Virus record (IMG/VR): IMGVR_UViG_3300012349_000007
Coordinates: 1 to 55,820 of that record
Length of the DNA: 55,820 nucleotides
DNA from: a virus
Strand: one strand, 5' to 3'
Shown here: piece by piece, positions 29,611-52,120 of the stretch
Numbering within the stretch: position 1 is the first letter of the stretch
Layout: each line of letters opens with the position of its first letter
Notes under the pieces: model-generated
What the model saw: only the letters and a program-made list of their open reading frames with translations
Told to the model about the DNA's origin: nothing
Databases searched by the model: none
Made by a program: the position numbers and the translations under genes

Positions 29611-29723
29611 TAGGAATGTCAAAGGGTGTCTCGCTTGCCGTGAGATGCATCTGCTGAGAGTGTAGCACAAGTATTCTTGAAAAATCAAGAAATATCTTGT
29701 ATAACTTAACTAGGAATGTCAAA
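29611..29723. repeat. Two 13-bp direct repeats before the integrase
   Basis: TAGGAATGTCAAA occurs at 29611-29623 and 29711-29723, exactly 100 bp apart, upstream of the integrase start. They could be integrase or excisionase arm sites. The rest of 29457-29738 shows no gene. Confidence 0.45.
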
Positions 29724-29738
29724 CCTCCACACAGCAGT

Positions 29739-30779
29739 ATGACCAGAAACGACGAATGGCCGCCGTTTGCCTTTGCACCTTCAGACCCATGGGGAAGGTG
29801 CTATTTGTCATTCCTTCGCAGAAAGTTTGACCGATCTGGCAGTCAAAGTACGCTCGTCCACTACCGACAGTACCTCATCCAATTCTTCACGGAGCCCGTC
29901 GCAAAAATGCCAGATCGCTATACACGCGAGGATGTTGAGGCGTTTATTCATAGTCCTGGCCGGGGACCAGGGAGAGAAGGTGATCCGCCTTCTGTCGGCC
30001 TGATGAATAATAGGCTGAGCCTGTTAAACTCGTTCTACAACTATGCTGCAAGCTATAGCATCACTGGGGAAGACGGCAGTATAGAGCCATTAATGAAACG
30101 CATGTCACCGACTGCTGGGCTAAAGCACATGCAGCGGGAGCGTCCACCGTACCGTGCGATGACGGCTAATGAATTACAGCGCTTCTTTGATGCTATCCCC
30201 AAAGACACGGTTATCGGGCTCCGCGATAGAGCGTTATTTTTGACCTATTTCTACACGGCACGCAGGCGGAGCGAGATTGTTGATTTGCGCTGGGGCGACC
30301 TCGAATATGGAACCATCATTGATGGAAACATGCGGTACAATTCGTGGATTTACCATTTTCGTGGTAAAGGGCATAAGCGTCAAGATGACTCCGCGGAGTT
30401 GCCCCTCCCAGCGAAAGTAGCGATAGATCGCTATTTGGAAGTTTCGGGTCGGAAGGACAGCATCAAATCTGAAGACCCCATTTTCACTGCTGCTGATAGG
30501 CGATACAAAAGCAATCCACCGCGACCACTTCACCCTAACACGGTGTGGCACGCGGTGAAGGTCTACGCGGCTAAGGCAGGACTTGATCCGAGGAAAGTAA
30601 CAACGCACAGTTTCAGACACACAAGTGCCAGGCGTCGTTTTGAAGCCGGTTCAACTATTCGAGAAATTCAAATCCTGCTGCGTCACTCCACCATGGCCGT
30701 GACCCATCTGTATCTTGAAGAGTCGTCAGCAGCGGACCCTGGTGCGAAACTCCTGGAAAAGCTATTCGAAGATTTGTGA
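29739..30779 (+). CDS. int: Tyrosine integrase
   Basis: 346 residues from ATG 29739 (no strong ribosome binding site; a TTG at 29697 is upstream in frame). An N-terminal SAM-like core-binding domain (about 20-125) leads to the catalytic domain with RRRSEIV (first Arg), GKGHKR (Lys), HSFRHTSARR (His-x-x-Arg), LRHSTMAVT (His) and the nucleophile Tyr in THLYLE. Integrates the genome at a host site. It stands between the late and early arms, followed by a strong terminator-like hairpin. Confidence 0.9.
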   Translation: MTRNDEWPPFAFAPSDPWGRCYLSFLRRKFDRSGSQSTLVHYRQYLIQFFTEPVAKMPDRYTREDVEAFIHSPGRGPGREGDPPSVGLMNNRLSLLNSFYNYAASYSITGEDGSIEPLMKRMSPTAGLKHMQRERPPYRAMTANELQRFFDAIPKDTVIGLRDRALFLTYFYTARRRSEIVDLRWGDLEYGTIIDGNMRYNSWIYHFRGKGHKRQDDSAELPLPAKVAIDRYLEVSGRKDSIKSEDPIFTAADRRYKSNPPRPLHPNTVWHAVKVYAAKAGLDPRKVTTHSFRHTSARRRFEAGSTIREIQILLRHSTMAVTHLYLEESSAADPGAKLLEKLFEDL

Positions 30780-34356: not shown

Positions 34357-35871
34357 ATGAATCAGCATAGTGTGAAGACCGAAGAGCAAAAGGATAACGA
34401 CAATTACGCAAAGAACTTTACACGAGTTCCTAACATTCTTTTTGAGTCGTATAAGTATCTCACCAAAGAAGAGGTGCTTCTCTACATACGGCTGCGCTAT
34501 ATCTACTGGGATACGAAGCCGCGCTATCTCTCTCTGAGAGAACTGGCAGATATAACCGGATACTCGACAGGGGCATTAAGCAAAATGCTACCGCGCCTGA
34601 CGATCGTCGGTTTAATCCATGCTGAAATCAGAAGGAAAAAGGGCAAAGACGGTAAGGAAAAAGGCAATCCCATATATCACATCACCATCAATGATATATG
34701 GGAAGAAAACCGCAAGTTCTTCACAGAAGGGCATTTTGACCCAAGTGAAGCGCTACTTGTTCACGAAATGAATGAAACCAGTTCACCAAATGAACAGGAT
34801 ACACCGAAACCAGTTCACCAAATGAACAAGCCTGTTCATAAAATGAACGACCCTGTTCACGAAACCAGACAAGATAGTTCACCAAATGAACAGGATCAAG
34901 CACAAAATAACCCACATAAGACTAATAGTAAGACTATTGATAATACTTCAACACAAGAAGAGAGTGTTACGCCCACCATTGCAGACGTGCCGGCATGTGG
35001 CGCTAACGCGCCAGCACTCTCTGCTTTGCCACTTCAAGAAAAAATGCTTGAAGAGGAAACGATCTGCTCTAAGTGTGGCAATCTTACTATCACCCCAAAT
35101 GATTGCCCTTGGTGTAAAGCGTCAAAACAAGTTTCCCTCCAAGAGAAAGGACAGACCGATGGAAGCAGCAACAATAATCATCGTCATCTCAGCAGTCTCA
35201 ATAGCCACCAACCTCTTCGTCAGCAATTGGATACTGCTGACGATACGCATGGAGCTACGCCTACTCAACAGAAAGAAGGATTAACCGATGGACATGACAG
35301 CATTCACAACCCTACTCATCTTCTGGATCATGGTAGCAATCTTAGCATTGGCACTCACAGCGATCGTCATCCTGGAAAATCGCCCGTAGCCCAACAGACA
35401 TCCACCTCCAAGCCTGTTCAGGAAGTCCCCCCACTTGCCACTTTGAGCAAGGTGCCTGAACAGGCCGCGTTGATGGCACCTGCGGAACCGAAACCGCGTG
35501 CCAGATCGGCACCGAAAAAGGCCGTAGAGAAGCCAGCGGGCCCGCCTCCAAGCGAGATGGAGTGGAGCACACGCAAATGTATGATGTTGTTCGATTTCTG
35601 GCGTGGAGCGCCACTGATCGGTACGTACAAAAACTCGCAGGCGTCCACGTGTGCGAAGGGATTAGCCGCCAACTACACCGAGCAGCAGGTAGTTGATGCG
35701 AGAACGGATATGGAAGCTGACATTTATTGGATGTCTCACGGAGGAGTAGATATCTGCGAGGTAGCGAACAACATCCACAAATATGTCAGGAAGCGCCAAC
35801 TAACTATTGTGGAGAAAGCTCCAGTGCCGGTGAAAATTGACCGCGAATACTTGAAGAGAGTGAAGCCATGA
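34357..35871 (+). CDS. Replication initiator, lambda-O-like, with origin inside
   Basis: 504 residues. The N-terminus (about 15-125) is a winged helix with FTRVPNILFES and LSLRELADITGYSTGALSKM, the type of phage initiators. Residues 134-178 are a low-complexity Asn/Gln/Pro stretch coded by palindromic iterons. A zinc-knuckle with CSKCGN and CPWC lies at 237-254. Residues 268-344 have an odd His/Asn-rich sequence because two membrane-protein genes are overprinted there. The C-terminal domain (about 390-480: MMLFDFWRGAPLIG, ADIYWMSHGG) may bind the DnaB helicase encoded next (4-nt overlap). Confidence 0.75.
   Translation: MNQHSVKTEEQKDNDNYAKNFTRVPNILFESYKYLTKEEVLLYIRLRYIYWDTKPRYLSLRELADITGYSTGALSKMLPRLTIVGLIHAEIRRKKGKDGKEKGNPIYHITINDIWEENRKFFTEGHFDPSEALLVHEMNETSSPNEQDTPKPVHQMNKPVHKMNDPVHETRQDSSPNEQDQAQNNPHKTNSKTIDNTSTQEESVTPTIADVPACGANAPALSALPLQEKMLEEETICSKCGNLTITPNDCPWCKASKQVSLQEKGQTDGSSNNNHRHLSSLNSHQPLRQQLDTADDTHGATPTQQKEGLTDGHDSIHNPTHLLDHGSNLSIGTHSDRHPGKSPVAQQTSTSKPVQEVPPLATLSKVPEQAALMAPAEPKPRARSAPKKAVEKPAGPPPSEMEWSTRKCMMLFDFWRGAPLIGTYKNSQASTCAKGLAANYTEQQVVDARTDMEADIYWMSHGGVDICEVANNIHKYVRKRQLTIVEKAPVPVKIDREYLKRVKP
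34759..34891 (+). repeat. Origin iterons: five GTTCA-N5-TGAAC palindromes plus a half-site
   Basis: Perfect 15-bp copies at 34781, 34813, 34834 and 34877, an imperfect one at 34759 and a half-site at 34855. Start-to-start steps are 22, 32, 21, 21 and 22 bp, about two helical turns. They lie inside the initiator gene just after the winged-helix coding region, as in phage lambda. Confidence 0.8.
34892..34960 (+). other. AT-rich unwinding-element candidate
   Basis: An A-rich, T-rich stretch immediately downstream of the iterons (runs such as TAATAGTAAGACTATTGATAAT at about 34923-34944). In lambda-type origins such DNA melts next to the iterons. Inferred from position. Confidence 0.5.
35159..35284 (+). 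CDS. Overprinted small membrane protein 1
   Basis: 41 residues in the +1 frame inside the initiator gene. AAAGGA lies 7 nt before ATG 35159. Residues 5-28 are hydrophobic (TIIIVISAVSIATNLFV, then WILLTI), followed by a basic tail (RLLNRKKD). The hydrophobic run and well-spaced ribosome binding site argue for a real gene. Role unknown. Confidence 0.6.
   Translation: MEAATIIIVISAVSIATNLFVSNWILLTIRMELRLLNRKKD
35288..35389 (+). CDS. Overprinted small membrane protein 2
   Basis: 33 residues, same frame as the preceding nested gene. AAGGA is again 7 nt before the ATG, and only 3 nt separate the two. Residues 5-28 form one transmembrane segment (FTTLLIFWIMVAILALALTA), ENRP at the end. The matching ribosome-binding sites support both. 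Confidence 0.6.
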   Translation: MDMTAFTTLLIFWIMVAILALALTAIVILENRP

Positions 35872-37509: not shown

Positions 37510-37724
37510 CCTGGACGATCATTTTTACCATAAGCGCGTCTACCCTGCTCATCGCGGTCTTCGTAGCCGATCTGCGAACCATGCAGACCGAACACGAGAC
37601 GAAGCAGCCACCAATGGAGCTTGCCGAATTCTCCCGCGCAATGAAACAACTGGATGATTTCAGCGAGACCGAGATATGGAAACTGTACGGCGTGTATCGC
37701 CAGAGAGGAAAGGTACAGGTATGA
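37506..37724 (+). CDS. Small membrane protein (72 aa)
   Basis: One N-terminal transmembrane helix (about 3-22: WTIIFTISASTLLIAVFVAD) and a charged helical C-terminus. ATGA overlap upstream; downstream overlaps the ArsR-type gene. Function unknown. Confidence 0.6.
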   Translation: MTWTIIFTISASTLLIAVFVADLRTMQTEHETKQPPMELAEFSRAMKQLDDFSETEIWKLYGVYRQRGKVQV

Positions 37725-38032
37725 CCACCTACGAAGATGTGCAGCGTTTCAAAGCGCTGGCCGACCCAACGCGCTTAACCTTGTTGCAAATCATTAGCCG
37801 CGGGGACGGTCTGCTGAATGTCATTGACTTGCGAGAGAAGCTGAACGTGCAGCTAGGCCGCCGACTTTCGCAACCGACAATTTCGCATCATCTGGGCATC
37901 CTCCGAGATGCGCGACTCGTGGACTCGACGAAAGACGGCCTGGAAGCTTTTTATCGGCTTCGTAGCGATGCATTGACATGCGCGATGGAGGTCTTACGCA
38001 CGATTGCGAGAAGGCAAGAGGTAGCGGTGTAA
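37721..38032 (+). CDS. ArsR-family winged-helix regulator
   Basis: 103 residues. The pattern FKALADPTRLTLLQII, then QPTISHHLGILRDARLVDS and YRLRSDA, is the winged helix of ArsR-type repressors. No metal-binding Cys pairs are seen, so it responds to something else or acts constitutively. It may regulate the phage early genes. Start ATG 37721 in ATGA overlap. Confidence 0.85.
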   Translation: MTTYEDVQRFKALADPTRLTLLQIISRGDGLLNVIDLREKLNVQLGRRLSQPTISHHLGILRDARLVDSTKDGLEAFYRLRSDALTCAMEVLRTIARRQEVAV

Positions 38033-40365: not shown

Positions 40366-41118
40366 ATGTATACCTACACATTGTCTTATCCTGAAGATTA
40401 CCTTGAGCTAGAGAAAGCAGGTACCATCTTCTATGTGGGTAAGGGAACGGGTAATAGGATACATCAGCATGAGAGGGAGGCTAGAAGGGGCGGGAAAGGC
40501 TATAAGTGTAACGTTATCCGCAAGATAGAAGCTTTGGGAGGAAAGGTTGTCAAAAAGATACTTGCCCACTTCAGCACACATAAAGAGGCTACTTGGTATG
40601 AAATAGCGTTAATCTTTTTTCTGCCTAATTTAACGAACTTAACATTAGGCGGTGATGGTTTAGTAGGCTATGTCATGACCACAGAGCACAAAACAAACAT
40701 AGGCAAGTCGATTAAGGTCTATACCCGTACTGAAGAGGAAAAGAAGCATTTAGCAGTACTTCGTACTGGCAAAACCACTTCTGCTGAGACACGAATAAGG
40801 CAGGGCATAGCTCATCAAGAGTTAACCCATACTGAGGAGGCAAAGCGGAAAATTCAAGTTGCTAATACGGGACGCAAAATGCCGAAAGAAGCCATTGAAA
40901 GGCGCATATTGATTATGGAAGGGAAGCCAAGGATCATCAATCACTCAGGGAGAACCTATTCGGGGCTCATTGCGCCTAATGGTCAACAGTACGATAACAT
41001 CACCAATCTTACAGCATTTTGTAGAGAACATGGGTTACAACAACCTCAATTAAATCTGGTTGCAAATGGTAAGCGAAAATCATATAAGGGTTGGCATTTG
41101 CGACAAGAGGGAGCATAG
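40366..41118 (+). CDS. GIY-YIG homing endonuclease with NUMOD-type DNA-binding repeats
   Basis: 250 residues. N-terminal GIY-YIG variant (VYTLSYP-like start, FYVGKGTGNRIHQH, then KKILAHFSTHKEATWYEIALI; residues 1-95). The middle has NUMOD3-like SAETRIRQGIAHQ, AKRKIQVANTGRKMP. The C-terminus has an IAPNGQQYDNITNLTAFCREH minor-groove module. AAAGGAG ribosome site. A typical free-standing homing nuclease. Flanked by the direct repeat GGTATTCCTA (40331, 41121). AT-rich relative to its neighbours, suggesting acquisition. Confidence 0.88.
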   Translation: MYTYTLSYPEDYLELEKAGTIFYVGKGTGNRIHQHEREARRGGKGYKCNVIRKIEALGGKVVKKILAHFSTHKEATWYEIALIFFLPNLTNLTLGGDGLVGYVMTTEHKTNIGKSIKVYTRTEEEKKHLAVLRTGKTTSAETRIRQGIAHQELTHTEEAKRKIQVANTGRKMPKEAIERRILIMEGKPRIINHSGRTYSGLIAPNGQQYDNITNLTAFCREHGLQQPQLNLVANGKRKSYKGWHLRQEGA

Positions 41119-43293: not shown

Positions 43294-43349
43294 AACATCC
43301 ATGATACAGTTGAAGCAATCGTTACTCGATGAGACGGGAGAGGTGAACC

Positions 43350-43595
43350 ATGCAGCCGAACGATTTGCGCGGCCACAGCCCGCCGCAATATGAGCTCTAC
43401 ATCCGACGCAGTGACCGAGCCTTGAAATTGGTCGAGCAGCACTCACGTCGTCCCGTTGCGATTGAGAGGGTGCTAGGGAGCCTTAGAGAATCGAGAGGTC
43501 TGTTTATCGTACTGCAAGACAAACGAAGGGTTACGCCTTATCTGATGGGCGATGAGATTCATTGGGTGAGCGAGTTTCCGAGCAGGGGAGGGTAG
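43350..43595 (+). CDS. Hypothetical protein (81 aa)
   Basis: ATG 43350 after GAGAGGTG. Beta-rich (GLFIVLQDKRRVTPYL) with basic N-terminal helix. It is the last gene of the plus-strand operon before a hairpin. Not recognised. Confidence 0.55.
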   Translation: MQPNDLRGHSPPQYELYIRRSDRALKLVEQHSRRPVAIERVLGSLRESRGLFIVLQDKRRVTPYLMGDEIHWVSEFPSRGG

Positions 43596-43598
43596 GTT

Positions 43599-43622
43599 AG
43601 GAGGCAGTTTTCACCGCCTCCT
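43599..43622. terminator. Convergent-gene hairpin
   Basis: AGGAGGC (43599-43605) pairs with GCCTCCT (43616-43622), 10-nt loop. Between converging genes; no U-tract on either side. Possible terminator. Confidence 0.45.
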
Positions 43623-43627
43623 GCTAG

Positions 43628-43810
43628 CTAGTGTTTCCGTTCTATTTGCTTTGCACAGGCTTCACATTTGCCCGTCTCGTGGTCAATGAGTTCCATGCGA
43701 GTATCCACCGGTCGGTGGCACTCACTGCACTCTTGCAATGGAACTTCTGTCCACTGGCTAAGCGCCTTACCATCATGGGCCCAGGCTCTGAATACTTGGT
43801 TCTTTCTCAT
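43628..43810 (-). CDS. Small zinc-binding protein, first product of the switch region (60 aa)
   Basis: ATG 43810 with AAGGAG 8 nt upstream. CSECH and CEAC give a zinc ribbon; the N-terminus is helical and basic. Its promoter (43856-43884) is near-consensus and shares a 13-bp -35 segment with the rightward promoter at 44863. Could be a regulator of the switch, but no DNA-binding motif other than the zinc site is seen. Confidence 0.6.
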   Translation of the reverse strand: MRKNQVFRAWAHDGKALSQWTEVPLQECSECHRPVDTRMELIDHETGKCEACAKQIERKH

Positions 43811-43855
43811 TTTCGCTTCTCCTTGACTCAATTTTGTGTTTCCTTCACTATCTAT

Positions 43856-43884
43856 ATTATAGCACATAGTCACCAATTAGTCAA
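43856..43884 (-). promoter_or_regulatory. Consensus promoter, leftward
   Basis: TTGACT (43879-43884), 17 bp, TATAAT (43856-43861). The -35 lies in the shared phrase TAAAGTGTTGACT and follows operator copy A. Confidence 0.85.
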
Positions 43885-43893
43885 CACTTTAGT

Positions 43894-43921
43894 AACCAAT
43901 TTTCAACGAATTTTGAAAACT
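43894..43921. promoter_or_regulatory. 28-bp operator copy A
   Basis: Identical to 44812-44839. Core TTTTCAA-CGAATT-TTGAAAA is a near palindrome. It sits 9 bp upstream of the -35 of the leftward promoter at 43856-43884. Confidence 0.7.
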
Positions 43922-43940
43922 CATAAAACTCGTTGAGGGA

Positions 43941-44112
43941 GGTGCTATTTTTTGAAAAAATAGCACCAGTTTCTCTCAATCAGTTTCTTTATAATGCGTT
44001 TCTCTCACAAGGTTTCTTTCTTAGTACGATGTCTAGGGAGTAGACCCCAGCGGTCTAAAGGCTAGACGAAGCGGTCTACTCAGTAGACCTCCTGGACGTC
44101 TACCGTCTAGAC
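43941..44112. other. Second origin candidate: iterons and a 27-bp perfect palindrome
   Basis: Palindromes GTCTA-N5-TAGAC occur at 44031, 44053 and 44074, a half-site at 44098 and an GTCTAGAC at 44105 (starts 22, 21, 24 and 7 bp apart). The last contains the stop codon of the winged-helix gene. On the left is a perfect 13-bp hairpin with 1-nt loop (43941-43967, GGTGCTATTTTTT arm), in AT-rich DNA. Same architecture as the array in the initiator gene but with other arms. Confidence 0.6.
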
Positions 44113-44454
44113 CCCTCGTACTTTCAGCTTGTAATACTTCTTAATTCTGGCTTTATCTCGTTCATCCTTTTTGCAGAGCAGATAGCCATGTTCTACCGCT
44201 CTTGCAATGCCATCGAGTACGGATTGTCTGCTGAGCCCTGTTCCATAATCGAGATTATTTCTTCCCTCCATAAATTCCTTAATGGTGATCTTTTTCCATT
44301 GATCGATCTCACCAAATCCCCAGGTATGACGCGCAACGTAGAAAAGGATCTTGAGCTCTGCGAGATTATCAACCTCCCTGAAAACGTCAATCCAATCATG
44401 GGGTATGCGAGTAAACCCGTATTCATTCGGGTTATCGAAACCTTCAAAAGTCAT
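44107..44454 (-). CDS. Stand-alone winged-helix protein, RepO N-terminal-like
   Basis: 115 residues. Pattern EYGFTRIPHDWIDVF, then LAELKILFYVARHTWGF, ITIKEFMEG and SRQSVLDGIARAVEHGYL matches the N-terminal DNA-binding domain of phage replication initiators; compare FTRVPNILFES in the 34357 product. There is no helicase-binding C-terminal domain. The palindrome array begins at its stop codon. It may bind those iterons as initiator, plasmid-style repressor or copy-number control. Confidence 0.7.
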   Translation of the reverse strand: MTFEGFDNPNEYGFTRIPHDWIDVFREVDNLAELKILFYVARHTWGFGEIDQWKKITIKEFMEGRNNLDYGTGLSRQSVLDGIARAVEHGYLLCKKDERDKARIKKYYKLKVRGV

Positions 44455-44557
44455 ATTTGCCTACATGCTATAATAGCAAGTGTCTAGCTAGAGGGCACGC
44501 GCCAGCTATCTACAGGTTTGGAATTCCAGTGGTATATATTGTGCGCGTGTCCTGGGC

Positions 44558-44746
44558 CTATGCTACTTCTTTTGCCTGCTTGTTATCCGCTAATCTTTCA
44601 TTTAATGCCTTGCATCTCCTATAAGCACCCTGCTTTTGTGGATAGACTTTTGTGTTATACGGCACCCTGTCGTTATAGTGAATCGGAGCCGAAGGACACC
44701 AAAAAATCTGATATCCACCCTCAACGGGAAACACCTTGTACTCCAT
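44558..44746 (-). CDS. Hypothetical protein of the switch region (62 aa)
   Basis: ATG 44746 with AAAAAGGAG upstream. A beta-type N-terminus (EYKVFPVEGGYQIFWCPS) and a Lys/Arg/Asn/Gln-rich C-terminal helix. It is the first gene after the leftward promoter at 44785-44813. Not recognised. Confidence 0.55.
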   Translation of the reverse strand: MEYKVFPVEGGYQIFWCPSAPIHYNDRVPYNTKVYPQKQGAYRRCKALNERLADNKQAKEVA

Positions 44747-44784
44747 ATTTGTCTCCTTTTTGTTATTATTGCCTTCCCTTTTAT

Positions 44785-44813
44785 AAGGTAACATATAAAC
44801 AACGAGAAGTCAA
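44785..44813 (-). promoter_or_regulatory. Leftward promoter under operator B
   Basis: TTGACT (44808-44813), 17 bp, TACCTT (44785-44790). Two bases of the -35 lie within operator copy B. TCGTT occurs just downstream of the -35. Confidence 0.65.
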
Positions 44814-44839
44814 CCAATTTTCAACGAATTTTGAAAACT
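44812..44839. promoter_or_regulatory. 28-bp operator copy B
   Basis: Identical to the 43894-43921 copy. It lies between divergent promoters (leftward 44785-44813, rightward 44863-44891), a good place for one repressor to control both. Confidence 0.7.
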
Positions 44840-44862
44840 GGTGCTTTTTCGTTGTTAAAGTG

Positions 44863-44891
44863 TTGACTTTTCGTTACCTGTGTGGTATTAT
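44863..44891 (+). promoter_or_regulatory. Rightward promoter of the early-right operon
   Basis: TTGACT (44863-44868), 17 bp, TATTAT (44886-44891). TAAAGTGTTGACT (44856-44868) equals the leftward -35 segment at 43879-43891. The gene starts 42 nt on. Confidence 0.8.
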
Positions 44892-44932
44892 TAGATCAGT
44901 GAAGAACACAAAAACAAACTGAGGGGGACGAA

Positions 44933-45217
44933 ATGACAAGGATCAACACCAGCCGCCAAGCGGTATCAGCCATGCAGAGGAATTGCACCTACAAGGCATC
45001 TGGTGCCATCGCCCAGCACGTTATCAATGCAACGGTCGAGCTCGACAGCACAGATCCGGTGCTCTACATCGATAGCAAGTTCTTGGTAGCCAGCAAGTTC
45101 AGCAATCGCTACTACACTTGCAAGCTGGTTCGTGGCCAGTGGACGTGTAGCTCGCAAGATGCGAGCGTAGCAGCTCGGTGCATCGCTCAGGCTCGGGCCT
45201 TCAGGCAGAGCTGGTAA
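44933..45217 (+). CDS. SWIM-like protein, degenerate (94 aa)
   Basis: ATG 44933 after GAGGGGG. The C-terminal half (FLVASKFSNRYYTCKLVRG, WTCSSQDASVAARCIAQAR) follows the beta-beta-alpha SWIM outline, but the CxC and CxH zinc ligands are CSS and CIA, so zinc binding is doubtful. Neighbour 45229 has an intact SWIM. Possibly a duplicated domain that lost zinc. Confidence 0.55.
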   Translation: MTRINTSRQAVSAMQRNCTYKASGAIAQHVINATVELDSTDPVLYIDSKFLVASKFSNRYYTCKLVRGQWTCSSQDASVAARCIAQARAFRQSW

Positions 45218-45228
45218 GAGGGAAACCG

Positions 45229-45441
45229 ATGACCAAGATTGCAACGATCACTTTGAAAGCAACAGGCCTCACCTACGAGGTGTATCCGGTGAAGTCATTT
45301 AGTGGCGCGGCTGAGTACAGCGTGTGGGTGATTAATAATCGTCCAGTTTACTGTAGGTGTCAATCTCGCAAATTTAACCCCCACAAGCTTTGTAAGCATA
45401 TGCGGGAATGGATGCGAGAGAACGTAGCGAGTGTGGCCTAG
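45229..45441 (+). CDS. SWIM zinc-finger protein (70 aa)
   Basis: ATG 45229. YEVYPVKSF...YSVWVINNRPVYCRC, then LCKH: CxCx(n)CxH is the SWIM signature for DNA or protein binding. Its stop and the next gene's GTG overlap (TAGTG). Probably acts with recombination proteins of this operon. Confidence 0.65.
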   Translation: MTKIATITLKATGLTYEVYPVKSFSGAAEYSVWVINNRPVYCRCQSRKFNPHKLCKHMREWMRENVASVA

Positions 45442-45767
45442 TGGACATTGTTGAATGGATGTGTCAGGAGCAAATGGAGCTTCTGGCACACGTTGAAGAC
45501 TCGATAAGAAATGGAAACTTTAAAATGATGAAGCAAACAGAGAAGCGCCAAATCGCTCTAAGAGCAGCTAGGGCACAACTGAGAACACTGGGGATCGATC
45601 CTCAGAAGACGGCAAGTTTTCAAGATATTCTGGCTGTGCTTGACGATCTTGCCAGGAGTGAGCCCGATCTAGTTGCTTCTCAATGGTACACGGCATCTAC
45701 AAATCATCAGATTGCAGCCTTACGGCGTGATTGGCATGCATGGCTGCGAGAGCAAAGAAACAGATAG
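45441..45767 (+). CDS. Hypothetical helical protein (108 aa)
   Basis: I chose GTG 45441 overlapping the previous stop (ATG 45408 would overlap more). Helical, with basic Arg/Gln-rich stretches (KRQIALRAARAQLRTLG). Not recognised. Confidence 0.5.
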   Translation: MDIVEWMCQEQMELLAHVEDSIRNGNFKMMKQTEKRQIALRAARAQLRTLGIDPQKTASFQDILAVLDDLARSEPDLVASQWYTASTNHQIAALRRDWHAWLREQRNR

Positions 45768-45775
45768 GAGACGAA

Positions 45776-45997
45776 ATGCACGTAGGCGATACAGTACGCA
45801 TCATTGCCGCCGATCATAGCGGCGAGATCGGTGAGTTGCGGGTGATAGAGCCCCTGGCCTTTATCGGTGATTTTTATGGCGTGTGGCTCGACAGCACAGA
45901 GACGATTGTATTCTTTTGGCCTGATGAGCTGGAGCCAGCTTCTCAGCCACACAAGACAACCCCGGCCTGGTGGTTGAACAATTCCAATGTATGGTAG
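45776..45997 (+). CDS. Small SH3/KOW-like protein (73 aa)
   Basis: ATG 45776 (AGGAGACGAA). MHVGDTVRIIAADHSGEIGELRVIEP, then VWLDSTETIVFFWPDELEP: a short beta barrel of the KOW/SH3 kind. Function unknown. Confidence 0.55.
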   Translation: MHVGDTVRIIAADHSGEIGELRVIEPLAFIGDFYGVWLDSTETIVFFWPDELEPASQPHKTTPAWWLNNSNVW

Positions 45998-46025
45998 TTT
46001 TCTATAGAAATTGAGAGGTAGCAAA

Positions 46026-46073
46026 ATGACACAAACAGCTTTACAGCCATATACTGGCGAAGAGGAAAAATAA
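46026..46073 (+). CDS. Possible 15-residue peptide at the front of an interrupted gene
   Basis: ATG 46026 with GAGAGG upstream, TAA 46073. Sequence MTQTALQPYTGEEEK reads like the start of a larger protein cut by the HNH insertion. Low certainty. Confidence 0.3.
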   Translation: MTQTALQPYTGEEEK

Positions 46074-46195
46074 TGGGCAATATACACTTTGTTGATAGAA
46101 CAGGTGAGCGATATGGGATGCTAAATGCTTCTATGTTGAACTTGCGGAATATCGAGCCCGGAAAAGAACTAACAGCCGGTACCAGGCGGAAGTAG
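46073..46195 (+). pseudogene. Detached N-terminal frame of an HNH nuclease
   Basis: A 40-codon frame (ATG 46073; GAGG upstream) begins GNIHFVDRTGERYGML, the typical N-terminus of HNH homing nucleases, but stops at 46195 in a different frame from the HNH body. The body frame is open from 46108. One frameshift between 46120 and 46190 would rejoin them. Confidence 0.5.
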
Positions 46196-46287
46196 ACAAG
46201 CCCTATTCCGCAAATCTTCTCTGGAAGCATATAGTCATTCTCTCTTTTGCCGGAATACACATTGACTCTTGCGGACATAAGCGCCGT

Positions 46288-46764
46288 ATGTGGCTATGCC
46301 AATGTGACTGTGGCAATACTAAAGTTCTAAAGTTCAGTGATATGTCAGGCAACCATACAAGAAGTTGTGGATGTTTGGTCAGAGAAGTCAATAAAAATAA
46401 CACCTACCGCCAAAAGCCTGATGGTTCATCGGCATTCAATCAACTTTACTTGGCTTACAAGAAAAGTGCTCGTTACCGAGGGTTATCCTTCGAGATTACA
46501 GAAGGTGAGTTTAGAATGCTCACAAAAAGCGATTGCTTTTATTGTGACCTACCACCTTCTTTACAAGCAAGTACTGTGAAGAAAACGCATGGAGAATATA
46601 TCTACACGGGTATTGATCGTATAGATAACTCTAAAGGATACACCCTAGATAATGTAAAACCATGTTGTAAGCAATGTAATTATGCCAAGCGGGATTTATC
46701 AGAACAAGAGTTTTTGGAGTGGATAACGCGCTTAGCTGCGCACCTAGTGATGCAAGAGAGGTGA
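46288..46764 (+). CDS. HNH homing endonuclease body, N-terminus probably frame-disrupted
   Basis: From ATG 46288, 158 residues: WLCQCDCGN, HTRSCGCL (the treble-clef-type N-terminal zinc module), then FYCDLPP, GIDRIDNSKGYTLDNVKPCC, CNYAKRDL (HNH core). The same frame is open back to 46108 without a standard start, coding LSFAGIHIDSCGHKRR, so the gene is longer than its ATG suggests. Lies just before the annealing-type protein. Could still cut if a shorter protein is functional. Confidence 0.75.
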   Translation: MWLCQCDCGNTKVLKFSDMSGNHTRSCGCLVREVNKNNTYRQKPDGSSAFNQLYLAYKKSARYRGLSFEITEGEFRMLTKSDCFYCDLPPSLQASTVKKTHGEYIYTGIDRIDNSKGYTLDNVKPCCKQCNYAKRDLSEQEFLEWITRLAAHLVMQER

Positions 46765-46767
46765 TTT

Positions 46768-47463
46768 ATGACATTCAACCCAGGCGACCATGTTATTATC
46801 ATGGAGCGCAAATCAAAGCAGAAGGATGCACAGGGACACGAAACTTGGAAGGTTACGAAAACCGAGTACCTGCCTGTACAATGGCGTCTTTACTGGTTTC
46901 GATTGGAGAACCAGAAAGGCAAGATTGACTCTAAGGCGCTCACCATTGACCTGGAAAAAGGGGCAGCCATTTTTGAAACCTTTGTGGAGCGTGAAGATGG
47001 TGGTAGCGCTCGTATGCATGGTAGTGAGACACAAGGTGATTGGAAAGACTATATCGAAAAGGCGCAAACAAAGTCTCTAGGCCGCGCTCTTGCTGCTGTA
47101 GGATACGGGTCGCAATTTACCGATGATGAATTTACAGAGGGAGAGCGCATTGTAGATAGTCCTGTAGATCGTGGTAAATCCCTTGAAGAGCATCACAATG
47201 GGAACAGGCCGGTACAGACACCGCCTCCACCGAAACAGCCCAATCCCATCGATCAACTGAAACGGAAGGCAGTGGAGGCTAAGTTCATTGTAGGTAGCAA
47301 TCCCCAGGAGCTTGCAACAATGTGGAAGAACCGCCTCCGCGCCGTGTTCCAACGCGAAGTGAGCGACCAGGACCTGTACGAGTCAGAGGCCCTACAAGGT
47401 ACCCTGCGTGATGCCATTGAGCGTTACGTGGCAAGGCAGGCAGCGGCCACGAGCGGGAAGTAG
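46768..47463 (+). CDS. Probable recombination protein (annealing/ssDNA-binding type)
   Basis: 231 residues. LPVQWRLYWFRLENQKG, ALTIDLEKGAAIF, GSETQGDWKDYIEKAQTKSLGRALAAVGYGSQF: the K.QTK..GRALA motif recurs in a large family of phage proteins linked to recombination. Pro-rich linker at about 145-165, then a helical C-terminal domain (VGSNPQELATMWKNRLRAVF). Exact biochemical role (annealing protein or ssDNA binding) is inferred. GAGGTG ribosome site. Confidence 0.6.
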   Translation: MTFNPGDHVIIMERKSKQKDAQGHETWKVTKTEYLPVQWRLYWFRLENQKGKIDSKALTIDLEKGAAIFETFVEREDGGSARMHGSETQGDWKDYIEKAQTKSLGRALAAVGYGSQFTDDEFTEGERIVDSPVDRGKSLEEHHNGNRPVQTPPPPKQPNPIDQLKRKAVEAKFIVGSNPQELATMWKNRLRAVFQREVSDQDLYESEALQGTLRDAIERYVARQAAATSGK

Positions 47464-47480
47464 CGAGAATATCAGGCAGC

Positions 47481-47504
47481 AGCGCACGGCTCCGGTCGTG
47501 CGCT
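47481..47504 (+). terminator. Hairpin terminator after the recombination gene
   Basis: AGCGCACG (47481-47488) pairs with CGTGCGCT (47497-47504), loop GCTCCGGT, followed by TTGTATT. It begins 18 nt after the stop. Confidence 0.7.
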
Positions 47505-47562
47505 TTGTATTGGCGAGTTTTCCCAATCTGCCAGAAATTGCTTATTTTGGTGCCAAAAAGAC

Positions 47563-47591
47563 TTGACAACTTCGTTTCGTTATGCTACAAT
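47563..47591 (+). promoter_or_regulatory. Strong promoter with TCGTT spacer motif
   Basis: TTGACA (47563-47568), 17 bp, TACAAT (47586-47591). The spacer contains TTCGTTTCGTTA, which resembles TTTCGTTA and TCTCGTTG in the promoters around 44.8 kb. It may be controlled by the same regulator. Confidence 0.75.
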
Positions 47592-47624
47592 ACTACTAGA
47601 TCAAGAAACAAGGGAGAAACAAAA

Positions 47625-48047
47625 ATGGACATCGATCAGCTTCTTTCAAAGCACAGCGATAACTACCGCTTTCACGGTGTACGCTCCGCGACATTGAGTC
47701 GCCTGATTGCTCAGTCTGAGAACGGTGAAATCCTTCTCTGGGGTCGCAATCCTGAGAGCGAGACCAGCGACTACCAGCAGGGCACTGGCGAACTGAGCGT
47801 CACTGATATCAGTGATATCGAGATGTCCTACAATGAATTTTGCGATGATGGCGGATTAGTCCTGGTGCTGGAAAAGATTGTTGCTGAGCCGGTTGAAATC
47901 GATCATGAGAGCGATGCTCGGGAGCATCTGGTTCGTGTCCAGGATTGGAAAGTGGTCGGTGGGCTTCGCCCAGTGGTTGATGAGGACGGCGAAGTGATCG
48001 ATCAGGAAGTCTTCTCCCTTGACGAAATCTTGAGTGAAGAGTTTTAG
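47625..48047 (+). CDS. Acidic protein (140 aa)
   Basis: ATG 47625 (GGGAGAAAC upstream). Very acidic C-terminus (VDEDGEVIDQEVFSLDEILSEEF). Beta-rich core. May mimic DNA or bind a basic partner. A perfect palindrome CACTGATATCAGTG lies in its coding region (47801-47814). Unknown. Confidence 0.6.
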   Translation: MDIDQLLSKHSDNYRFHGVRSATLSRLIAQSENGEILLWGRNPESETSDYQQGTGELSVTDISDIEMSYNEFCDDGGLVLVLEKIVAEPVEIDHESDAREHLVRVQDWKVVGGLRPVVDEDGEVIDQEVFSLDEILSEEF

Positions 48048-48058
48048 AAAGGAAAATC

Positions 48059-48268
48059 ATGGCAAAGAAGATCAGTGAGGTAGCGCGGGAGGCTCTCGTT
48101 CAGGCTCGTGAAGAGGGACTGAACGATGACGACGCAAAGTGGCTGGCGGTGGGGGCCGTTAATGCCGAAGCCAGAAAGGTAGGCGTCATCGGCAAGGAAC
48201 TGACGCCTGAGATGAACGCTGCGTCTCAGGCAGTCGTCAAGCAAGAGTTGAAGCATGGCAAAAGGTAA
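48059..48268 (+). CDS. Small helical protein (69 aa)
   Basis: ATG 48059 (AAAGGAAAA upstream). Helices (VAREALVQAREEGL, DAKWLAVGAVNAEARK). Overlaps the next start by 14 nt. Not recognised. Confidence 0.55.
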   Translation: MAKKISEVAREALVQAREEGLNDDDAKWLAVGAVNAEARKVGVIGKELTPEMNAASQAVVKQELKHGKR

Positions 48269-50468: not shown

Positions 50469-51398
50469 ATGGATGGCCTTGTTCCCTATCAGCAACAGCG
50501 TATAGAGCAATCAATTGTAGACGTTTTAAAGATCCTTGATAGCAAGGAGTCAAAGCGAGTCTACAATCTTGATATTGCCTACTTTGCTGAGTGGATGAAA
50601 GAAAAGCACCTGACTTACCAATCTGTGACTACCTCAGATATTATCGCTTATCGTGAGCTGCTAGGGCAGACATTTAAGAAAGCTACATCGCAACGCATGT
50701 TTTCAGTTATTCGACGTCTTTTTAAGATGCTTGTTAGTCGAGGTGTGCGAACTGATGACCCTATCACGGATGTAAAGGGTTTCAAGCTTGCTAATGAGAG
50801 TACCCATATAGCTCTGAGCAAAAAGCAAGCAGAAAATCTATTAGACTCAATTGATACAAGCAGCCCAAAGGGCAAGCGTGATTATGCATTACTATCTCTC
50901 CTTTTACGGACTGGCATCCGACGCTCTGAATGTGCTGCATTGAATATAGGCGACTTAAGTACAGAGGAGGGATATCATATTGCCACTATCCAACATGGAA
51001 AAGGAGATAAACGGCGTATCGTGAAAATACCTGTAGACGTCTTTCGCTCCTTAGAGAGATATATACAAGCCTCTGGTAGAACTATAACATCACTGGATAA
51101 CCCGCTCTTTATCGGTTTTGATAGACGTCCTGAGTATGAAAGCCAACGCATTAGCGAGAAGGTGATAGAGCGTGTGGTTAGAGAATATGGTAAAAATATT
51201 GGCTTCTTACCTCCAAAGAGGCTTACCCCTCACGATTTGCGGACGTCGTTTATCACACTCTCAAGGGAAGGTGGAGCTACCTTAGAGCAGAGGCAATTTG
51301 CAGCAGGTCATTCAGACCCGCGCACAACACAACGCTATGATGTCCGCAAACTAAACCTAGACCATAATGCAGTAGATTATATTCACTTGTGGGAGTAA
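50469..51398 (+). CDS. Tyrosine recombinase 2 (XerC/D-like)
   Basis: 309 residues. N-terminal core-binding domain (1-105), then catalytic domain with TGIRRSECAA (Arg), HGKGDKRR (Lys), HDLRTSF (His-x-x-Arg), AGHSDPRTTQRYD (His and Tyr). Start ATG 50469. It is expressed from its own promoter and coupled to an HNH gene. It may resolve dimers, integrate at another site, or move a cassette. Confidence 0.88.
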   Translation: MDGLVPYQQQRIEQSIVDVLKILDSKESKRVYNLDIAYFAEWMKEKHLTYQSVTTSDIIAYRELLGQTFKKATSQRMFSVIRRLFKMLVSRGVRTDDPITDVKGFKLANESTHIALSKKQAENLLDSIDTSSPKGKRDYALLSLLLRTGIRRSECAALNIGDLSTEEGYHIATIQHGKGDKRRIVKIPVDVFRSLERYIQASGRTITSLDNPLFIGFDRRPEYESQRISEKVIERVVREYGKNIGFLPPKRLTPHDLRTSFITLSREGGATLEQRQFAAGHSDPRTTQRYDVRKLNLDHNAVDYIHLWE

Positions 51399-51406
51399 AC
51401 GATCAG

Positions 51407-52120
51407 ATGCTACAAAACCTAGGAACTGGAAAATGTGACACTTGTTTAGAAAGCCCTCGCCCTTTGTTTTCGTTTCATCAGGAATGCGTTTATGTTCGTA
51501 ACCCTGGTGAGGGGAGATATTGCCCTGCTTGCATTCTCACTTTTCAACAGGAATGTGATGTACCTCCGCGTGAATGGTTACGCCGTTGTGATGATTGCTT
51601 TACGTATATGGCATTCAAAGACCTTCTGCGGCATGAGCGGATAAAACATCGATGGTGGGGTTTTTGTCCTGACTGCATGGCAAAACAAATCAGGCGGAAT
51701 AGCCTTACCTGTGTAGTATGCGGTGAGTCCACACTTGAATATACATACCTTTCTCGTATCCATTCTACATGCGAGAAATGCTATGTGCATTCACCAAAGT
51801 TAGCGGTAGTCATGTATCATAATAGCAGAGCAAAAGCATTGAACTTGCCTGCTACACTGACAACAGAGCAATGGGAACAAGCTATAAAACATTTCAATCA
51901 TCGTTGTGCTTATTGTCCTGACGGGCCTTATGAAGTACTAGAACATTTTTTACCTTTATGTCTTGGAGGTGGTACAGTAGCAAATAACTGTGTGCCTGCT
52001 TGCCATTCCTGTAATGTTCGTAAGAAGGATAAGCACCCTAACGACTTCAGCAGATTGTTTCCGGCTTCGAACATCGCTCGTATCACGGCGTATCTGGCTC
52101 AGCACGTTGGCGTGCTATAA
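51407..52120 (+). CDS. HNH endonuclease with multiple zinc knuckles
   Basis: 237 residues from ATG 51407 (a GTG 51389 would overlap the recombinase). Cys pairs at CDTCLE, YCPAC, RRCDDC, FCPDC, TCVVC, CEKC (several zinc sites), then a C-terminal HNH: RCAYCPDGP, EVLEHFLPLCLGGG, NNCVPACHSCNVRKKDKHP. The link with a recombinase (no gap) suggests a functional unit or a co-mobile cassette. Confidence 0.8.
   Translation: MLQNLGTGKCDTCLESPRPLFSFHQECVYVRNPGEGRYCPACILTFQQECDVPPREWLRRCDDCFTYMAFKDLLRHERIKHRWWGFCPDCMAKQIRRNSLTCVVCGESTLEYTYLSRIHSTCEKCYVHSPKLAVVMYHNSRAKALNLPATLTTEQWEQAIKHFNHRCAYCPDGPYEVLEHFLPLCLGGGTVANNCVPACHSCNVRKKDKHPNDFSRLFPASNIARITAYLAQHVGVL

What the first reader, a model, noticed from the sequence alone, without database searches (positions are those of the whole stretch)
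43856..44891. A switch region: one 28-bp operator twice, three promoters
Identical AACCAATTTTCAACGAATT... copies at 43894-43921 and 44812-44839 sit at a leftward promoter, and between a leftward and a rightward promoter. A 13-bp TAAAGTGTTGACT also repeats in two of the -35 regions. The TCGTT motif near the -35 of these promoters also occurs at 47563. No classic CI-like repressor is visible, so the regulator may be a small protein of this region.
Basis: partly seen in the sequence, partly recalled or inferred. Interest (0 to 1): 0.72.

Follow-up and report, generated by a model that had tools for sequence, protein, structure and literature searches.

The report
Phage switch enclosing a second origin
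A bacterial virus carries a two-way genetic switch with a repeated control sequence, and between the two copies sits what looks like a second start site for DNA copying together with only the DNA-gripping half of its starter protein.

Summary
The 28-bp element is exact at both places and occurs nowhere else in the contig. Three near-consensus promoters are present, with a weaker divergent fourth. TCGTT boxes cluster at them, and the divergent region 44795-44881 is the best dyad of its size in the 55.8-kb phage contig, with boxes paired 22 bp apart.
Comparison supports a switch. Two other phages carry the same boxes in front of a homologue of the 62-aa gene at 44558-44746, near an integrase. 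Of 497 window ORFs (>=40 aa), only this one is shared with both of them and absent from two relatives that have other promoter motifs. It is the best candidate regulator; binding is untested and no fold was recognised.
The unexpected part lies between the operator copies. Gene 44107-44454 encodes only a winged-helix domain of the phage lambda O initiator type. Its 3' end abuts four GTCTA-N5-TAGAC iterons and then AT-rich repeats: a complete-looking lambda-type origin, separate from the phage's own O gene with GTTCA-N5-TGAAC iterons. An iteron-only scan returned 23 viral loci; 7 encode a homologue beside the array. I favour a replication-interference/autoregulatory cassette; a plasmid-mode replicon or a relic remain possible.

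The parts
43894..43921 (+). 28-bp operator copy 1, just upstream of leftward promoter 43884
   Evidence: exact twin of copy 2, 2 in the contig
44812..44839 (+). 28-bp operator copy 2, between the divergent promoters
43856..43884 (-). leftward promoter TTGACT-17-TATAAT
44785..44813 (-). leftward promoter of the 62-aa gene, TTGACT-17-TACCTT, TGT before the -10
   Evidence: read; conserved in L043 and L044; not found by the consensus scan
44863..44891 (+). rightward early promoter TTGACT-17-TATTAT
   Evidence: orthologous promoter with a like 5' leader in L009:4779
47563..47591 (+). rightward promoter TTGACA-17-TACAAT with two TCGTT boxes in its spacer
   Evidence: orthologous promoters in L009 and L012
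44795..44881 (.). divergent operator: TCGTT boxes 44801(-), 44823(-), 44849(+), 44871(+), mirror-symmetric about 44838, 22 bp within each pair
44558..44746 (-). 62-aa protein, candidate switch regulator
   Evidence: homologues L043:4998-5192 and L044:4956-5186 beside like operators; sole ORF of 497 with that profile
44107..44454 (-). 115-aa winged-helix protein, orphan DNA-binding domain of lambda-O type
44031..44112 (.). four iterons GTCTA-N5-TAGAC (44031, 44053, 44074, 44098), the last overlapping the stop codon of the 115-aa gene
   Evidence: only four in the contig
43969..44017 (-). AT-rich element with four AGAAAC repeats (period 14-15), DNA-unwinding-like
43941..43967 (.). perfect hairpin with 13-nt arms between the AT-rich element and promoter 43884
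   Evidence: I15
43628..43810 (-). 60-aa protein with two CxxC pairs, downstream of promoter 43884
   Evidence: weak zinc-finger matches below cut-off
44933..45217 (+). first gene of the rightward operon, 94 aa
   Evidence: 29% match in G002 next to its promoter 47512
34357..35871 (+). the phage's own O-like initiator, with in-gene iterons GTTCA-N5-TGAAC at 34781, 34813, 34834, 34877 (one-mismatch copy 34759)

Best explanation
This is the lysis/lysogeny-type control region of a temperate phage, with a replication cassette built into its leftward side. (1) Shown by sequence: divergent promoters carry mirror-image pairs of TCGTT boxes at -14 and +8 relative to the start of each -35, 22 bp (two helical turns) apart; the same boxes lie at promoters 43884 and 47563. 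Inferred: one protein binds them and occludes or modulates RNA polymerase; the best candidate is the 62-aa product of the leftward gene, which would repress the rightward early operon and its own promoter. (2) Shown by sequence: the leftward side also holds a DNA-binding-domain-only O-type initiator, four cognate-looking iterons and an AT-rich repeat element, i.e. a lambda-type origin without the helicase-recruiting half of its initiator. Inferred: the 115-aa protein binds the iterons but cannot load helicase alone; it most likely silences initiation at origins of that iteron class (on this genome or a superinfecting one) and feeds back on its own transcription, as lambda ori fragments do in the inhibition phenotype. 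The anatomy is firm (about 0.8); the function of the cassette is a minority-confidence guess (about 0.35).
For: Operators and promoters. Same boxes, promoters and gene order in L043 and L044: TCGTTGAAAA with <=1 mismatch occurs 3 times in the G003 switch and once in the G004 switch, plus 3 and 1 elsewhere in those contigs. The 62-aa gene is the only one of 497 window ORFs found in both G003 and G004 and in neither G001 nor G002; it lies close to an integrase there. Orphan initiator: tblastn to the G001 O-like gene at 34%, E 8e-7. An iteron-only pattern scan returned 23 viral loci, and 7 of the 23 encode a homologue of the 115-aa protein beside the array by single-sequence tblastn (E 2e-12 to 5e-7). 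Pfam Phage_rep_O reaches its cut-off in 3 of 4 homologues tested, and PHROG O-like families match 7 of 8 alignment members. The order domain-iterons-AT-rich element is also seen in homologues with in-gene iterons. Precedent for replication silencing by lambda iterons: PMC3349717 (abstract, passages and section 15 read).
Against: No binding data. The 62-aa model is poor (pLDDT 59.5), its fold search gave nothing (best E 3.1) and no family matches it, so DNA binding is not shown. G003 and G004 are distant and G004 is a 23-kb fragment, so a fast-evolving true repressor could have escaped the profile. The window's 115-aa protein itself matches no Pfam family and no PHROG at E <= 0.01; the link runs through its homologues. 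The lambda inhibition phenotype needs oop RNA as well as iterons (PMC3349717), and no RNA family was found here. The 7 homologue-bearing loci are about 3 independent lineages. For 11 of the 23 iteron loci no replication gene is shown, and 7 of those 11 were not tested with family models.
Confidence: 0.5

Rival explanations
1. The orphan domain and origin form a working second replicon that keeps the prophage or early genome as a plasmid, while the O-like gene at 34357 drives lytic replication, as with the two replicons of P1 (P1 recalled).
For: The origin looks complete: four iterons plus AT-rich repeats. L024 (contig of 153,759 bp) has a stand-alone 130-aa homologue with 3' iterons near a ParA gene; L041 has a stand-alone 149-aa O-like protein with four 3' iterons.
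Against: No ParA match among the window ORFs scanned. The phage has two tyrosine integrases, which suggests integration. No helicase-recruiting domain.
Confidence: 0.25
2. The domain and iterons are a relic of an O gene that was replaced by the present one; only the operators matter.
For: O-gene N-domains and iterons differ between relatives while the C-terminal part (52%) and DnaB (96%) stay. G001, G002, G003 and G004 have no GTCTA-N5-TAGAC site.
Against: All four iterons are perfect in their ten fixed bases and the 115-aa frame is open with a predicted winged helix. No trace of a lost C-terminal domain nearby.
Confidence: 0.2
3. The 115-aa winged-helix protein, not the 62-aa one, is the repressor of the TCGTT operators; the iterons are further operators.
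For: It lies in the leftward cluster where relatives have other small genes, and winged-helix domains often repress (general knowledge).
Against: Its homologues travel with GTCTA iterons, and G003 and G004 have the TCGTT boxes without a detectable homologue of it.
Confidence: 0.12
4. The 62-aa protein is an Apl/Cox-like excisionase-regulator rather than a maintenance repressor.
For: It neighbours an integrase in L043 and L044. Boxes are direct repeats in helical phase (22 bp here; CAAC boxes 11 bp apart in L043 and 22 bp in L044), as stated for phage 186 Apl between pR and pL (PMC7498355, abstract start in a search listing).
Against: No family or fold match; no boxes examined at an att site.
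Confidence: 0.3

Closest known systems
Phage lambda O protein and ori-lambda (Phage_rep_O, PF04492)
   Same: Winged-helix initiator domain, four iterons in a row and an adjacent AT-rich element (lambda layout as in PMC3349717); homologues here are Phage_rep_O by Pfam.
   Different: Only the DNA-binding half is encoded; the array lies after the gene, in the switch region, and a separate full O-like gene with other iterons exists about 10 kb away.
Lambda inhibition phenotype (oop-ori-lambda, PMC3349717)
   Same: Carrying lambda iterons silences replication of phages of the same replication type.
   Different: There it is an artificial plasmid fragment that needs oop RNA; here a natural cassette encodes its own binding domain and no RNA family was found.
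RepA_N plasmid and PLE satellite initiators (PMC7145576, passages; 4pt7, 4pql)
   Same: Similar winged-helix N-domain (Z 8.0, 3.8 A over 96-97 residues) and semi-palindromic iterons.
   Different: Z is tied with many unrelated winged-helix rows; no sequence link.
Phage 186 pR-pL region with Apl (PMC7498355, listing only); P2 Cox (recalled)
   Same: Small protein, helically phased direct repeats between divergent early promoters.
   Different: No homology shown; the 62-aa protein has no recognised fold.
Plasmid pIGRK RepR/RepR' (PMC6854812, abstract)
   Same: A truncated initiator acts as negative regulator of replication.
   Different: There the truncation is N-terminal and in-frame within one gene.

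Membership tests
Lambda-O-type initiator and origin | Winged-helix iteron-binding domain homologous to O-like initiators | tested here: met
   tblastn 34% to the G001 O-like gene; 7 of 23 iteron loci. The window protein alone matches no Pfam model and no PHROG at E <= 0.01.
Lambda-O-type initiator and origin | Array of about four iterons with an adjacent AT-rich element | tested here: met
   Four GTCTA-N5-TAGAC, spacing 22, 21, 24; GC 0.33 in 43968-44022; four AGAAAC repeats.
Lambda-O-type initiator and origin | C-terminal domain that recruits helicase or loader | tested here: not met
   115 aa only; no trace of O C-terminal parts in 43300-44999.
CI/Cro-type lambdoid switch | HTH repressor encoded beside divergent promoters | tested here: inconclusive
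   62-aa protein matches no family; no HTH_3 among the ORFs scanned.
CI/Cro-type lambdoid switch | Shared operators at divergent and distant early promoters | tested here: met
   TCGTT boxes at promoters 43884, 44813, 44863 and 47563.
Apl/Cox-type excisionase regulator | Direct-repeat sites in helical phase between pR and pL | tested here: met
   22-bp phasing in the window; CAAC boxes 11 bp apart in L043, 22 bp in L044.
Apl/Cox-type excisionase regulator | Excisionase fold or family | tested here: inconclusive
   Low-confidence model, no fold match.
RepA_N initiators | RepA_N N-domain | tested here: inconclusive
   Z 8.0 to 4pt7/4pql, tied with unrelated winged helices.

The most novel reading that the evidence does not exclude
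Temperate phages carry a natural replication-interference cassette inside the lysogeny switch: a binding-domain-only initiator plus its complete but helicase-less origin, of a different iteron class from the phage's own, expressed with the lysogenic genes to block phages that use those iterons. This would be a second layer of superinfection immunity, aimed at replication instead of transcription.
Probability: 0.2. Interest if true: 0.75.

Novelty: new variant of a known kind. Interest (0 to 1): 0.55.

Why it matters
It ties a specific initiator-domain family to a specific iteron (GTCTA-N5-TAGAC), which can be tested with one binding assay. It gives a natural setting for the old puzzle of replication inhibition by lambda origin fragments. 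It also offers a small protein with no recognised fold as the regulator of a phage switch. O domains and their iterons differ between close relatives, while one phage keeps two classes; this suggests that replication specificity may be selected much as immunity specificity is.

Tried and rejected
Looking for the 20-bp operator core in all viral contigs gave 4 contigs with one copy each; I treated them as chance and did not examine them. Nearest DNA in 50,697 phage records: none. Single-protein searches for the 115-aa and 94-aa genes in viral contigs found no confirmed relative. The 115-aa protein had no tblastn match in phage or plasmid records, and the 62-aa one only a chance-level match. Two genome-collection scans found no relative, so the host stays unknown. 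The last viral scan with the 62-aa alignment gave only the two contigs already in hand. I considered the ArsR-type protein 37676-38032 as regulator: it was not found in G003 or G004 (a search without a positive control). Idea that the 62-aa protein has an AP2-like fold: not supported by the model. Rfam: nothing at E <= 0.1 in 43500-48200. The leftward small proteins of G001 and G002 look HTH-like to my eye, but the G001 one matched no Pfam or PHROG family and the G002 one was not tested. Foldseek and VIA-align hits for the 115-aa protein are generic winged helices. Direct comparison of the 115-aa protein with the window's own O-like protein was weak (E 0.06). Literature on phage origins, truncated initiators and superinfection showed no report of such a cassette in the listings; no search was made by iteron sequence, and one search on the supposed host group was off target.

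Full report
What the window is. The window is a whole 55,820-bp IMG/VR viral contig classed as linear. It carries a terminase (tblastn to phage terminases), DnaB, two tyrosine integrases and an O-like initiator. Phage G001 is a circularly permuted relative (DnaB 96% identical); G002 is more distant. The host was not found.

The observation. The 28-bp element is exact at 43894-43921 and 44812-44839 and occurs twice in the contig. The 13-bp TAAAGTGTTGACT repeat coincides with the -35 boxes of promoters 43884(-) and 44863(+). The two promoters also share a similar leader (AGATCAGTGAAGAACACAAAA versus AGATAGTGAAGGAAACACAAAA, read), so one looks like a duplicate of the other. With 47563(+) these head the list of ten promoter matches. 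TCGTT boxes: 8 in 194 bp against 0.40 expected, none of 5000 simulations reaching 8 (regions chosen after the fact). The divergent region is mirror-symmetric: boxes at 44801(-), 44823(-) and 44849(+), 44871(+), centre 44838. It is the highest-scoring 87-bp dyad in the contig.

Comparison with relatives. At the orthologous early promoters, G001 and G002 carry different motifs in the 17-bp spacer: an ACGTA core in G001 and a GTATC-type palindrome in G002. This is what heteroimmune relatives look like (inference). Two further phages, L043 (G003) and L044 (G004), encode a homologue of the window's 62-aa protein (68% and 62% over the matched part). In both, the gene is divergent from a strong promoter, and the intergenic DNA aligns with the window's switch, including the -35 regions, CAAC/GTTG boxes and the extended -10 of the 62-aa gene. 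Three CAAC boxes are 11 bp apart in L043 and two are 22 bp apart in L044. An integrase homologous to the window's lies just beyond the gene. Of 497 window ORFs of at least 40 aa, one, the 62-aa gene, has homologues in both G003 and G004 and in neither G001 nor G002. Widening to 'G003 or G004, not G001 or G002' adds a GIY-YIG endonuclease and an antisense ORF over the same gene. This is association, not proof of binding.

The orphan origin. Gene 44107-44454 (115 aa) lies between the operator copies. It resembles the first part of the G001 O-like initiator (34%, E 8e-7). Immediately 3' of it, the nearest iteron overlapping its stop codon, stand four GTCTA-N5-TAGAC sites (44031, 44053, 44074, 44098), the only four in the contig. 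They are followed by AT-rich DNA (GC 0.33) with four AGAAAC repeats at 14-15 bp. The phage's own O-like gene has four GTTCA-N5-TGAAC iterons of the same geometry within its frame. G001 has another repeat class there. None of G001 to G004 has either site.

Independent test of the pairing. I scanned the viral contigs for two GTCTA-N5-TAGAC sites in a row, using DNA only: 23 loci. With 20 fixed bases and 7 gap lengths, fewer than one is expected in about 10^11 bases (my estimate of the collection size, even base composition assumed). tblastn with the window's 115-aa protein alone hit 7 of the 23 loci, each time beside the array. A profile that included five of these added L037, also beside its array. 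The 7 are about three lineages, as L021, L025, L032, L038 and L039 are near relatives. Four more (L022, L026, L029, L041) have a PHROG replication-initiation gene next to the array. L027, L033 and L035 gave no family match for the nearest ORF, L036 none in Pfam, and seven loci (L020, L023, L028, L030, L034, L040, L042) were not tested with family models. In seven of the eight homologue loci the array is inside the gene. In the five of these that I printed (L021, L025, L031, L032, L037) the order is as here: domain, iterons, AT-rich element. In L024 the domain stands alone, as in the window, near a ParA gene. By eye the segment TGLSRQSV of the window protein is shared with most of the GTCTA group and differs in the G001 O protein and the window's own O; such segments are common in winged helices.

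How it may work. The switch: a protein, most likely the 62-aa one, binds helically phased boxes that flank each -35. The cassette: a binding-domain-only initiator on its own origin. In lambda, plasmids with iterons 3-4 and oop transcription silence replication of phages of the same replication type (PMC3349717; abstract, passages, section 15). In plasmid pIGRK a truncated initiator antagonises replication (PMC6854812, abstract). I therefore favour silencing and autoregulation, but a plasmid-mode replicon (extrachromosomal prophage origins are known, PMC7157519, abstract) or a relic is not excluded.

Structure. The 115-aa model is a winged helix (pLDDT 75, pTM 0.69). RepA_N N-domains 4pql and 4pt7 are among the matches at Z 8.0, tied with unrelated rows. 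The 62-aa model is poor.

Verdict. Observation confirmed; switch interpretation supported by comparison; regulator assigned by association only; a second origin with a half initiator, for which I saw no report in my searches, lies inside the interval. The literature searches were by words, in an open-access library only.

Noticed in passing
window 34357-35871 versus G001 (L014:15211-16554): The O-like genes share their C-terminal part (52%) and the next gene DnaB (96%), but the N-terminal domain and in-gene iterons differ: a swapped specificity module.
   Followed up: partly
L012:5710-6681: G002 seems to encode a sigma-70-like factor (read by eye) just upstream of the orthologous early promoter L012:6930.
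   Followed up: no
window 37676-38032: An ArsR-type winged-helix protein follows DnaB; the Pfam match was reported for the set of ORFs and assigned to this one by eye.
   Followed up: partly
window 29697-30779 and 50469-51398: Two different tyrosine integrases; the first is closest to one in G001, the second to one in G002.
   Followed up: no
window 40366-41118, 46288-46764, 51389-52120: GIY-YIG, endonuclease VII-like and HNH genes, probably homing elements, sit in the early regions.
   Followed up: no
L012:6930 and L012:8246: In G002 a near-perfect palindrome fills the whole 17-bp spacer of two promoters.
   Followed up: no
L035:5236-5370 and L041:5577-5657: Six and four GTCTA-N5-TAGAC iterons in regular arrays in other viral contigs.
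   Followed up: no
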